In this document: in pieces, positions 51,587 to 64,000 of the stretch
Numbering within the stretch: position 1 is the first letter of the stretch
Layout: every line of letters begins with the position of its first letter
DNA from: Allodiplogaster sudhausi
Lineage: Eukaryota > Nematoda > Chromadorea > Rhabditida > Diplogasteridae
DNA length: 64,000 nt
Direction: 5' to 3'
NCBI GenBank assembly: GCA_945643635.1
Contig: CALZFC010000252.1
Coordinates: forward strand, 3,579,501-3,643,500
Notes under the pieces: model-generated
Seen by the model: the letters and a program-made list of their open reading frames with translations, nothing else
What the model was told of the DNA's origin: nothing
The model's database searches: none
Position numbers and translations under genes: made by a program

Positions 51587-52069
51587 TTAATATATTGCTA
51601 CACAACTCAGAACTGTGAAGAAGAGAGCAGTGAGCAGAGCCAATGAAGACGCCGAAGAAGTTGTTGTTTCCGCCTCAAACAGTTGAATCATTTATGTTCA
51701 TTTCAGTGTTTTCATGGTCAGCTACCGTTTTGAGCTTTGCCAGAATTCAGAAGAGAGAATACGTATTATGAACGGAAAGACTATTTAATGCAGTCTAACA
51801 GTCCCTTCAGATCAATTGTATCTACTGTTTCTTTGCATAACACAGCTTCTCGAGAGAAGCGAACTTACCGAGGCGGAAGCTGTGGATGGCGGGGATGCGG
51901 TGGAGTCGGTAGATTGAGTGCTGGCTGAGGAAGCAGAGCTACCGGTTGAGTCGGTGGCGCCACTCGAGTCCGTTTGCTGAGATGCCGAGGATGCGGTTGG
52001 TGTTTGGGCCGAAGTGGGCGGCACTCTCGTTGTTGGGCCATCAGAGGCTGAGTTTTCCTTCGGCTGAAG
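51587..52069 (-). other. Ser/Thr-rich stalk and hydrophobic C-terminal tail
   Basis: About 70 residues of Ser/Thr/Ala/Pro (for example [14 protein letters not shown]), then an exon with [15 protein letters not shown] ending C-V-A-I-Y and TAA. There is no basic cytoplasmic tail, as expected for a GPI-attachment signal. If the last intron is retained, the frame ends instead at 51812 without the hydrophobic segment. Confidence 0.65.
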
Positions 52070-61000: not shown

Positions 61001-64000
61001 CGTCGGCACAAAGTGACCGCCACCCTGAAGAAACCAATTGTGAAATCCAATTAAGCATAACTTTTGTTTTTATTGTTTTTTAAAGTAATTATTTTGCAAT
61101 GTTTTCATCTATTTTTCAATCTGAATGAAATAAAAGGAAATAACCTTGACAGTGAGCGAGTCGATGTGGATGCCCAGCTTCTGGTTGTAGAATGACTTGG
61201 CGTATCCTCCGATGCGAGGCACGAACTCGCTGCTCCGCGTGTAGTTCCAGCCGTGGCGTGCATCGATCACCGAGAACTGAAAATCAGAGATGCCAACGCT
61301 TTTTATTTATTTATTCTTGTGAATTAAAATCAATCGATAATCTGACATTATGCCGGCCAGCGATTCGCTCAGTGAACCATTGGTCACCAAGAAAATTGCA
61401 TGCCATGTCGGCGTCGCCGTTGAAGAGCAGAATCCGGAAGTTAGAGTAGCCTTCAATTAATACACCTTTATACTTCGGTTCAATTGTTATTGTCTGCCGA
61501 AGAGATTACCGGAAGTGAGAATGCTGTCGAAGACGCTGCTCGTGTCGTGATGCTGCTGCTGGTAGAGCTGCTCGTTGATGACGTCACTAAATTAACATTT
61601 AATAAAAATAAATAAAAGTAATTATGTGGTACAAGTAAATAGCTTCGTTAGAACAGCGCACCTGCATCCTTGGTAGGGCTGCACGAATTCGGGGACATGA
61701 AGAGCCTGGCGGACTTCCCTCTGGTTCAGGTAGATCTCGGCGGCCGCGCTCATGTAGCAAGGGAAAGCCTCCATTGCATCCGTCGAGTCCGGGCTTCCTT
61801 TCGCCTGCATGTAGCATATTTTGCTTGTTCCATTTATAATATACTTTAATTCTTTTTAGTTGAATTTAAAGCAAACTAATGATTTCGAACGTACTCCCTG
61901 GTTGACGAATGGTTCTTGATAGTTGTTGAAGAGTTTCGAGAAGGGAGCCTTCGGCTTGGGCGCCAGCTGCCTTCTCCTCAGCACGTCCATGACAGTCAGT
62001 GCTCTTGGCTGAGACGCATCGTCGTAGCAGTCTTGGTATGTGTTGTACACGTCGTTGCTGCAAATTAACAATAACTTGATCATTAAAATCATTTCGACAT
62101 TCTTAAAAGTATGCAGTTTTACCCGCCCATCCAGAGGCGTTGATAGCCAAAGTCAACGACGTCGTTCGCACATTTCTGAAATATTCGGATTGTTCGACTT
62201 TACTTCATCAGTGGATACAAAGCCATTGAGGACTCAATCTCGCCTGCTTCGTCGGGTCGTTCGGGAATTTCTTGGCGATAGCATTGCCAAAGTCGTCAAG
62301 GTCGATGAGGTCGGTGAACTTGCAGTAGACGAAGGAGTCCTCCGACGACTTCGGGCAGCACTTGTACAGGGACGTGTACTCTCTGAACATGATCAGGGAA
62401 TCGAATGCTAACACATATTCATACAGGAACCCAAAAATGACTGTAGATATTCTTGTCTGTCCTTACTCGTTGCCGATGATGCCTCTGAAGTACATGAGAT
62501 CGATGCCAGAGTTGATCTGGTCGTACTCGTTCAACTCGCCGTTTCCGATGACAAAGCCGCGGAAGTTGACGTAGGGCATCGAGCCATTCTAAAAATAGAT
62601 CTTTCAAAAGTGCTCGATTCAGCATCCTTCTGTGCATCAAATTTCGTGCTTCCATTGTGTGCTTAAAATGCCAGCTTGCGATTACAAATGCGATTGTTCC
62701 TTATCATTGCCGAGGGACCAAAGTGCAAGAAAGGGAAGGAAGCTTAGAAAGTGATAATCTACCAGTGGCGAGTGATTAGTCTTTGAGGTGATGAGACCTT
62801 GATAAACTTGATGAGAAGGTCTGAGAGCGTCGGTACATAGACACCGCCGTAGGATTCTCCAGTGATGTAGAAGTCGCGGAACAGATACTCGCTGTAGGCA
62901 CGGAAGAAACTTTGCAAGGCCAGCACCGTGTCCGCTGCCGTCTAGAAAATGAAAGAGACATAATAAAATATGTATGAACGGACTTTGTTATCAGACACAA
63001 CTCAGCTTAACATTTTATTGCCATTTACCTCTTTGATCGGAATCACTTATGTACCTCATGCAAACTACTTTTAAATTTAGGAAGAAAGACTTTGAAACCT
63101 TGTCATCGTTGAAGACGGTGTCGTTACCGTAGGTCTTCGAATCGCGGTAAGAGAAGCCGATGTCGCGAGGCGATTCAAGATAAAGAATATTTGCCAGCTG
63201 AATAATAAACACATTTAGGACCGTTTTGTAATTTATACAAATTTTAATTCGATTTATTCTGGTGTGATTTGATATCTCAGAACCTTGTTCCAGGCGAAGA
63301 CATTCTCAACGAGTTGCTTGCCATCGCGTGTTGAGTGGAAGGGTCCGTGCTCAGTGAAGAGGCCGCCGAGAGAGGAGCAGCCCGGCCCACCATTCAACCA
63401 CAGAAGAAGAGGAGCTTCGCGGGAGGACGACTGCGCTTCGAAGAACCTTCATTCCCAACAGTATCCATCCATCATTTCACATCGACGTATTTTACTAATT
63501 TCACAACGACTGATCTTATTCTCTTTCGTTATCCGGAGTTTAGTAGAAATTTTAAAATACATGTGTATTTATTTACATACCTCTCTGAGTCATTCGCGCT
63601 TTGTTTCTAAAAAGTGCTTCACTAGAAACTAGATAATGTTTTACCATTTACCTATTCTCACCAAAAATGACACGTTTACAGCTCTCCATCTACTTTAGTA
63701 TCATTTGCTTGTAAGAAGAGTGACAAAAAAGGCGTCCCCAATATAATGATAAGCCGTGATGGCTTACACCTAGCAATCCGCTGCAACAAGCAGTCAAGAA
63801 TTTCTCAGGAATGATACTGATAAAAAATATCCGTAGCCAAAATGCCGCGACATTTTGAATTTTAGTATTGAAAAAAATTAAATTTAATGTTATTTATAAA
63901 ATGGTCATGGCAAAGAAATTGAAGGTTCGTTTGGAAAAAAAATCAAGAAATATTTTACCAGTAGTGCAAGTAGTTTCCAAGAGACGCATCAAGATATCCG
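51587..64000 (-). CDS. Tandem serine carboxypeptidase (four S10 domains visible), 5' end outside window
   Basis: Minus strand, partial at the window edge. Exons encode four peptidase S10 domains in series; every inter-domain junction keeps reading phase with no stop, so this is one gene. Each domain has N-G-G-P-G-C-S-S or a variant, the nucleophile G-E-S-Y-A/G-G, the acid in N-G-D-x-D and the His in G-x-G-H-x-V-P. All four therefore look catalytically complete. The reaction should be removal of C-terminal residues at acid pH, by analogy with cathepsin A and carboxypeptidase Y. Dibasic sites occur within domains 1, 3 and 4 and between domains 2 and 3. The C-terminus is a Ser/Thr/Ala-rich stalk and a hydrophobic tail, suggesting surface attachment. 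From memory, C. elegans has similar multi-domain genes (K10C2.1 type); I could not check. An N-terminal signal peptide would lie outside the window. Confidence 0.88.
52143..54841 (-). other. Carboxypeptidase domain 4
   Basis: Opens [24 protein letters not shown] (about 54610), S-G-E-S-Y-A-G-V-Y (about 54100), [10 protein letters not shown] (about 52590) and [11 protein letters not shown] (about 52250) follow. The internal loop carries D-R-R-Q-R-R-V-E-L (about 53229-53240). Confidence 0.85.
54930..57816 (-). other. Carboxypeptidase domain 3
   Basis: Opens with a five-proline run (R-P-P-P-P-P-A-G-S), then L-N-G-G-P-G-C-S-S (about 57515), T-G-E-S-Y-A-G-V-Y (about 57080), [10 protein letters not shown] (about 55600) and [11 protein letters not shown] (about 55085). 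S-R-A-K-R-S-V in the internal loop (R-A-K-R at 56109-56120) fits a furin-type site. The last exon joins domain 4 in phase through a GT at about 54933; retention of that intron would end the protein after five codons (stop at 54922-54924). Confidence 0.85.
57897..58019 (-). other. Inter-domain linker with furin-type site
   Basis: Charged Pro/Glu/Lys-rich exon between domains 2 and 3. It contains H-L-R-R-K-R-S-V-R (R-R-K-R at 57927-57938), an R-x-K-R consensus for subtilisin-like proprotein convertases. Confidence 0.75.
58020..60760 (-). other. Carboxypeptidase domain 2
   Basis: Starts [15 protein letters not shown]. It has L-T-G-G-P-G-C-S-S, with Thr in place of the usual Asn (60514-60516). 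G-E-S-Y-G-G is split by an intron near 59990-60037, [10 protein letters not shown] lies near 58640 and [11 protein letters not shown] near 58220. It is the only one of the four without an obvious basic site in its internal loop. Confidence 0.85.
60869..64000 (-). other. Carboxypeptidase domain 1 (N-terminus cut)
   Basis: Runs from [14 protein letters not shown] at the window edge through L-N-G-G-P-G-C-S-S (about 63390), T-G-E-S-Y-G-G-V-Y (about 62857), [10 protein letters not shown] (about 61420) and [11 protein letters not shown] (about 61005). An L-R-R-R-Q basic site lies near 61971-61982 in the excision-loop position. It ends in a Pro-rich linker (Q-K-P-P-P-A-P). Confidence 0.85.

What the first reader, a model, noticed from the sequence alone, without database searches (positions are those of the whole stretch)
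51587..64000. A carboxypeptidase polyprotein: at least four complete S10 domains in one chain
Seen: four S10 domains follow one another on one strand, and at each boundary the donor and acceptor phases agree with no stop. All four keep the Ser, Asp and His motifs. Known: most S10 enzymes are single-domain, while multi-domain forms are reported in nematodes. Inference: four active copies in one surface-bound or processed chain would give high local exopeptidase capacity, or several released isoenzymes.
Basis: partly seen in the sequence, partly recalled or inferred. Interest (0 to 1): 0.75.

Follow-up and report, generated by a model that had tools for sequence, protein, structure and literature searches.

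The report
Four-headed nematode carboxypeptidase gene
One nematode gene encodes four complete protein-trimming enzymes joined in a single chain that looks membrane-anchored; related four-part chains are found in other roundworms, so the gene is real but not new, and its assembly and cutting plan is predicted here from sequence alone.

Summary
On the minus strand, 64252 to 51587 (first 252 nt beyond the window), one 61-exon model encodes 2256 aa: signal peptide, four complete S10 serine carboxypeptidase domains with intact Ser-Asp-His triads, a Ser/Thr-rich stalk and a hydrophobic GPI-type C-terminus. A second genomic copy keeps the frame: 6768 coding bases aligned without a gap, one 9-base insertion, 119 of 120 splice dinucleotides, dN/dS 0.04-0.11 per domain. 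It is not unique: the 30 related nematode proteins examined, from Ascaris to Caenorhabditis, have four S10 stretches. The four domains fit a duplicated pair, (D1,D3)(D2,D4); the other pairings are rejected. The D2-D3 linker is long. A convertase-type site (RX[KR]R) sits in the D3 loop of 19 of 22 group-A proteins (shuffled loops: mean 0.8), within the span where solved two-chain S10 enzymes are interrupted. Best reading: a surface-tethered, four-site exopeptidase, nicked in D3, in diplogastrids perhaps also cut between the pairs. Release of four separate isoenzymes is unlikely. No transcript or protein data were available.

The parts
51587..64000 (-). Whole gene inside the window (ATG at 64252, outside; stop codon 51589-51587); 61 exons, 2256 aa
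   Evidence: frame kept in the second copy
60737..64000 (-). S10 domain D1 (aa 28-563; begins at 64050, outside the window); Ser 62854-62852, Asp 61409-61407, His 61015-61013
57999..60736 (-). S10 domain D2 (aa 564-1073); Ser 59985-59983, Asp 58627-58625, His 58223-58221
57762..57998 (-). D2-D3 linker (aa 1074-1126 by the profile bounds; 66 aa by the His+45 rule)
57927..57938 (-). RRKR, followed by SV: proprotein-convertase-type site in the D2-D3 linker (exon 58031-57893)
54817..57761 (-). S10 domain D3 (aa 1127-1650); Ser 57081-57079, Asp 55595-55593, His 55086-55084
56108..56119 (-). RAKR, followed by SV: convertase-type site in the D3 loop (19 of 22 group-A proteins have one)
52140..54816 (-). 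S10 domain D4 (aa 1651-2163); Ser 54098-54096, Asp 52585-52583, His 52268-52266; also RQRR 53237-53226 in its loop
51869..52063 (-). Ser/Thr/Pro-rich stalk exon (from aa 2164)
51590..51673 (-). Last exon, with the hydrophobic C-terminus [19 protein letters not shown] (51646-51590): GPI-type signal without a cytoplasmic tail

Best explanation
One gene makes one secreted, membrane-tethered chain with four serine carboxypeptidase (S10, cathepsin-A-like) active sites. The signal peptide sends it into the secretory pathway (read from sequence). The Ser/Thr-rich stalk and hydrophobic tail attach it to the outer face of a membrane, most likely by GPI (inferred). The chain is two duplicated two-domain units, D1-D2 and D3-D4, joined by a longer linker (supported by tree and linker lengths). 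A furin-like convertase cuts the D3 loop; conserved cysteines should hold the two D3 chains together, so D3 matures into a two-chain enzyme while the molecule stays whole (inferred). In diplogastrids a second cut in the D2-D3 linker may let the D1-D2 half leave (inferred). The product trims C-terminal residues from peptides, most plausibly at the gut surface or in an acidic lumen (inferred from the family).
For: Motifs and frame. Pfam x4. Second copy and purifying selection on each domain (dN/dS 0.04, 0.07, 0.06, 0.11). Four-domain relatives. Triads SDH in group A: D1 19 of 20, D2 21 of 22, D3 22 of 22, D4 20 of 22. In a tree of 11 species each position is monophyletic and (D1,D3)(D2,D4) is best; (D1,D2)(D3,D4) p-AU 0.0012, (D1,D4)(D2,D3) p-AU 0.012. 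Linkers: D1-D2 7-16 aa (29 proteins), D2-D3 38-76 (31), D3-D4 8-17 (31). D3-loop RX[KR]R in 19 of 22, shuffles mean 0.81, maximum 4 in 2000; one match in 55,609 residues of domain cores. Hydrophobic tail (13-aa mean hydropathy 2.0 or more) in 22 of 26 proteins checked, of 31 held. The loop falls in the stretch of the D2 query not aligned to the two separate chains of cathepsin A (4az0) and CPW-II (1whs, 3sc2).
Against: No transcript, protein or activity data. No GPI predictor was available; a single-pass membrane tail is not excluded. The D3 site is missing in Strongyloides, Parastrongyloides and Rhabditophanes (3 of 22 group A) and in 8 of 9 group-B proteins, so cutting is not essential everywhere. 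The linker site is in only 6 of 22 group-A proteins. In the larger FastTree (136 sequences) D1 was not monophyletic (17 plus 3, the three being the window and two Pristionchus), and D1+D3 had support 0.549 against 0.974 for D2+D4. Tissue is unknown for this species. The gene model rests on splice-site scoring, homology and two genomic copies, and several exons were placed or adjusted by hand.
Confidence: 0.7

Rival explanations
1. The four domains are separate genes in a nematode operon, each trans-spliced and translated on its own.
For: Introns at the domain boundaries are short (111, 51, 78 and 99 nt by the coordinates), the size range of operon spacers (recalled). A Met lies 30 residues before D2, at the end of the last D1 exon.
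Against: No signal peptide is seen by eye before D2, D3 or D4. The first Met after each domain start is 57, 32 and 44 residues in (aa 621, 1159, 1695), that is 3 residues after, 17 before and 5 before the GGPGCS segment. Linkers keep frame in the second copy. Four-domain chains are predicted in other species.
Confidence: 0.04
2. It is a true polyprotein: the chain is cut at all boundaries and releases four separate carboxypeptidases.
For: RX[KR]R in the D2-D3 linker of this gene and in the DNA of all six four-domain loci fetched from this genome.
Against: No RX[KR]R in 29 D1-D2 and 31 D3-D4 linkers; the most conserved site lies inside D3, not between domains.
Confidence: 0.1
3. Same protein, but with a transmembrane or lysosomal destination: the hydrophobic tail is a membrane anchor and the protein acts in lysosome-related gut granules.
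For: The best-scoring solved relatives are lysosomal cathepsin A. K10C2.1, which I recall as the C. [quoted passage not shown] silencing it did not block the effect tested there. The Ascaris tail ends in DEGRRSAQC after the hydrophobic run.
Against: In 18 of the 22 proteins with a hydrophobic run, the chain ends 0-5 residues after the best 13-residue stretch, as GPI signals do (three Caenorhabditis tails were cut by me before a fused part).
Confidence: 0.2

Closest known systems
Four-S10 'Carboxypeptidase' proteins of nematodes, group A (e.g. Pristionchus pacificus P0003, Nippostrongylus P0002, Caenorhabditis auriculariae P0001; C. elegans K10C2.1 is recalled, not retrieved)
   Same: Four S10 domains, signal-peptide-like N-terminus, Ser/Thr-rich stalk, mostly a hydrophobic tail; 37-52% identity over the 21 proteins used
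   Different: Sequence divergence; the D2-D3 linker convertase site is regular in the diplogastrid-type set but not in the others
Second nematode group, 'B' (e.g. Caenorhabditis angaria P0035, Haemonchus P0038)
   Same: Four S10 domains
   Different: D1 lacks the catalytic Ser in 9 of 9; 35-37% identity; D3-loop site in 1 of 9; whether A and B share one fusion event is unresolved
Cathepsin A / lysosomal protective protein (PDB 1ivy, 4az0, 7kdv)
   Same: S10 by sequence, triad, two-chain form with the loop in the span between the chains
   Different: Single domain in the solved chains; no tandem array
Achlya hypogyna S10 protein (P0049, oomycete, 2111 aa)
   Same: Four S10-like domains, each as a pair of profile matches
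   Different: 31% identity over 47% of the query; probably an independent fusion (inferred)

Membership tests
Peptidase family S10 (PF00450) | Profile match over the domain | tested here: met
   Four stretches, 1536.1 bits against a cut-off of 21.9, on the 2163-aa model
Peptidase family S10 (PF00450) | Ser-Asp-His triad in GES, GDxD and GH contexts | tested here: met
   All four domains
Peptidase family S10 (PF00450) | Exopeptidase activity at acidic pH | not testable with these tools
   No bench data
Nematode four-S10 carboxypeptidase, group A | Four full-length domains in conserved order | tested here: met
   Each domain clusters with its positional counterpart in 11 species; in the larger FastTree this held for D3 and D4, for D2 apart from one foreign domain inside, and not for D1
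Nematode four-S10 carboxypeptidase, group A | Single transcript | not testable with these tools
   No cDNA; frame and selection support it
GPI-anchored proteins | N-terminal signal peptide plus C-terminal hydrophobic run without cytoplasmic tail | tested here: met
   MLQPRMVLVAVLFLATSAIAA and [19 protein letters not shown], read by eye and by hydropathy
GPI-anchored proteins | Recognised cleavage (omega) site by predictor, or PI-PLC release | not tested
   No predictor in the toolset
Two-chain S10 enzymes (cathepsin A type) | Cuttable loop between heavy-chain and light-chain regions, flanked by cysteines | tested here: met
   D3 loop RAKR; both flanking Cys in 20 of 20, 22 of 22, 22 of 22 and 22 of 22 group-A D1-D4 domains; loop within the span between the chains of solved relatives
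Two-chain S10 enzymes (cathepsin A type) | Cleavage actually occurs | not testable with these tools
   Needs protein chemistry

The most novel reading that the evidence does not exclude
A surface-tethered exopeptidase machine kept across nematodes, made of two covalently joined carboxypeptidase pairs and switched on by convertase cutting of one chosen domain (D3); paralogues repeatedly turn front-half domains into dead subunits, which suggests that D1-D2 regulates or feeds D3-D4. Diplogastrids add a second cut that can shed the front pair.
Probability: 0.3. Interest if true: 0.65.

Novelty: new member of a known kind. Interest (0 to 1): 0.45.

Why it matters
S10 enzymes are mostly single-domain (general knowledge). 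A four-site chain kept in many nematodes, with one domain specially marked for cutting and others decaying in paralogues, is a clear test case for why an animal would fuse near-identical exopeptidases. It may bear on nematode digestion: S10 proteins were found in Ascaris gut-membrane and lumen fractions (PMC4287503, passages read), though I could not match those entries to this family.

Tried and rejected
Operon of four genes: rejected on missing starts and signal peptides. More than four domains: rejected, the upstream DNA has an ATG and signal peptide.

Gene models: one search lacked the 5' end and had a wrong last exon; one search chose wrong 5' exons and dropped the D2 exon 60333-60238. 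In one search I set exons 1, 2, 60333-60238 and the last by hand. In some searches I added exons 58031-57893 and 55791-55737 and moved the starts at 57814 and 55649 and the end at 53154, guided by orthologues and the C6 copy. Models of the other four loci are incomplete and were used only to read motifs.

Literature: searches (20 listed of 441; none; 4; none; 20 of 37; 10 of 21) showed no title or abstract on this architecture; the unlisted papers were not seen. One search gave one paper naming K10C2.1; one search gave two naming Y16B4A.2, not opened. In PMC5500496 (passages) a single-domain enzyme is described. Structure prediction was not run: the chain exceeds the length limit and its spliced pieces cannot be read letter for letter from the DNA. 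One search, on whether the species could be a diplogastrid with a genome duplication, gave only a listing and settled nothing.

Rows dropped: one search scored only the 7984 candidates sharing most words and returned 58; 30 entered the alignments (21 group A, 9 group B; grouping mine, by score). The other 28 were left out as truncated, additional copies or close relatives of species already used, unnamed or non-nematode; six of them, all Pristionchus, were used. P0044, filed under B, is a long branch whose D2 and D3 fall among A. In one search the D4 and D3-D4 linker of P0039 were counted as tail because that D4 lacks the His column; one search counts its linker correctly. Of the 120 proteins listed (2779 hits), 14 served as single-domain comparison.

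Full report
What is there. The window is G000:C246:3579501-3643500 of an unnamed 351.8-Mb assembly. Four complete sets of S10 motifs lie in order on the minus strand, and these motif patterns matched nowhere else in the window. I built a spliced model with a self-trained dynamic-programming gene finder, fetched 10 kb upstream, found the start, and adjusted exons by comparison with orthologues and with the second genomic copy. The result is 61 exons from 64252 to 51590 plus the stop codon 51589-51587, 2256 aa, 56 GT and 4 GC donors, all AG acceptors. The signal peptide is MLQPRMVLVAVLFLATSAIAA; its exon (64252-64201) and most of exon 2 (64079-63959) lie outside the window. Pfam finds PF00450 in four stretches and no other family at E up to 0.001, on the 2163-aa version of the model.

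Is it one chain? Contig C6 (about 11.25 Mb) carries a second copy, 90.3% identical over 16,734 aligned bases and 96.0% in the coding bases. Aligned to the model, 6768 coding bases have no gap, one 9-base insertion and no stop; 119 of 120 splice dinucleotides are kept, the exception being an alignment gap at one donor, where the C6 model has a GT. dN/dS is 0.04, 0.07, 0.06 and 0.11 for D1 to D4, 0.16 for the D2-D3 linker and 0.38 for aa 2141-2256. Separate genes would need their own starts: no signal peptide is seen before D2, D3 or D4, and the first Met lies 57, 32 and 44 residues into the domain; one Met lies 30 residues before D2, inside the last D1 exon. Whether the two copies are alleles or products of a genome doubling I cannot tell (dS 0.12-0.16 per domain).

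Who else has it. A search with residues 1-2160 of the 2163-aa model returned 58 proteins; it scored only the 7984 candidates sharing most words. Thirty were used: 21 in a closer group A (37-52% identity) and nine in a more distant group B (35-37%). After merging split matches all 30 have four S10 stretches, three of them (P0013, P0014, P0043) with the first one cut short. They include Ascaris, Strongyloides, Steinernema, Pristionchus, Nippostrongylus, Mesorhabditis and Caenorhabditis. So the architecture is old and is present in public databases, often under the name 'Carboxypeptidase'. I found no description of it in the listings I saw, which do not cover subscription journals. In the FastTree the window's D1 and D2 each group with two Pristionchus proteins (support 0.999), so the species is probably a diplogastrid or near one (inferred).

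How the four domains arose. With 11 species (44 domains, 509 columns) each position is monophyletic and the best tree pairs D1 with D3 and D2 with D4; (D1,D2)(D3,D4) has p-AU 0.0012 and (D1,D4)(D2,D3) 0.012. In the larger FastTree of 136 sequences the same pairing appears, with support 0.974 for D2+D4 but only 0.549 for D1+D3, and D1 is split (17 plus 3); group-B domains fall outside group A, partly next to single-domain nematode enzymes, so the relation of A and B is open. Seven introns inside the window's domains sit at the same alignment column and phase in all four domains, and the boundary intron after D1 and after D3 matches. The D1-D2 linker is 7-16 aa, D3-D4 8-17 aa, D2-D3 38-76 aa. 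A two-domain gene duplicated as a unit explains this.

Active sites. In group A the triad is SDH in 19 of 20 (D1), 21 of 22 (D2), 22 of 22 (D3) and 20 of 22 (D4) domains; exceptions are Steinernema P0017 (D1, D2), Panagrellus (D4) and Aphelenchoides (D4). In group B D1 lacks the Ser in 9 of 9, D2 and D3 are complete in 9 of 9 and D4 in 7 of 9. This genome has two further loci with S10 arrays, each also in two copies (84.7% and 90.1% identical; the genome search scored 100 of 175 candidates). Incomplete models suggest that D2 has lost Ser and His in both, and D1 its Ser in one (C246, 4.70 Mb). The window's gene would then be the only one of the three with four complete triads; this rests on weak models.

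Cutting sites. RX[KR]R occurs in the D3 loop of 19 of 22 group-A proteins (shuffled loops: mean 0.81, maximum 4 in 2000 rounds), against 1 of 20, 0 of 22 and 5 of 22 for the loops of D1, D2 and D4, and once in 55,609 residues of domain cores. In group B it is in 1 of 9 D3 loops. It is absent in Strongyloides, Parastrongyloides and Rhabditophanes. The two chains of solved cathepsin A (4az0) and wheat carboxypeptidase II (1whs, 3sc2) align to residues up to 217-222 and from 324-328 of the D2 query; by my count from the sequence the loop is about residues 278-323, inside that span. Cysteines flanking the loop, and those of GGPGC and of the later segment around alignment column 604, are nearly invariant in all four domains; that they form the cathepsin A bridges is recalled, not tested. 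The D2-D3 linker has RX[KR]R in 10 of 31 proteins, the other linkers in 0 of 29 and 0 of 31. Of 13 diplogastrid-type sequences (five from this genome), 12 have it, the miss being an incomplete model; the DNA of all six loci of this genome shows both the D3 site and the linker site in open frames. Of 14 single-domain enzymes one, from C. remanei, has the loop site.

Tail. After D4 comes a stretch with 61% S, T and P and then a hydrophobic C-terminus. Of 26 proteins checked (of 31), 22 show a 13-aa mean hydropathy of 2.0 or more near the end, counting Caenorhabditis models that I cut before a fused ubiquitin-like part; the misses are Nippostrongylus P0002, Steinernema P0017, C. briggsae P0008 and Haemonchus P0038, where the predicted ends may be wrong.

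How it most likely works. Shown: one open frame through 61 exons in two copies, four complete active sites, signal peptide, tail, the pairing of domains in the tree, conserved site motifs. Inferred: single transcript, GPI attachment, convertase nicking of D3, disulfide tethering, peptide trimming at a surface. Function in gut is a guess from relatives (PMC4287503 and PMC12270918, passages only).

Verdict. It is a new member of a known, little described family; the duplicated-pair origin, the D3-specific site and the loss of active sites in front domains of paralogues are the points worth following.

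Noticed in passing
L014-L016 (G000:C6:8024001-8054000), reverse-complement positions 14529, 17286, 20043: In the C6 copy of one paralogue, a segment of the D2-D3 region recurs three times at a spacing of exactly 2757 bp: a recent triplication or an assembly artefact.
   Followed up: no
L009, about 65.8-67.4 kb in window numbering: Just upstream of the gene lie reading frames that look like a major-sperm-protein-type domain and a very Lys/Glu-rich stretch (label recalled, no family search).
   Followed up: no
13026-13805 and 14889-15636: Two inverted, nearly identical stretches whose frames repeat a 14-residue unit (FPARFSSGTIPEMT and variants), a repeat-rich palindrome.
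   Followed up: no
35287-35600, + strand: Gly-X-Y repeats typical of a cuticle collagen (label recalled).
   Followed up: no
P0001, P0005, P0007, P0008 and P0028, P0029, P0032 C-termini: Predicted Caenorhabditis group-A proteins carry a ubiquitin-like part (PF00240) and group-B ones a PF01963 part; probably gene-model fusions with a neighbour.
   Followed up: partly
P0049 (Achlya hypogyna): An oomycete protein of 2111 aa also has four S10-like domains, likely an independent fusion.
   Followed up: no
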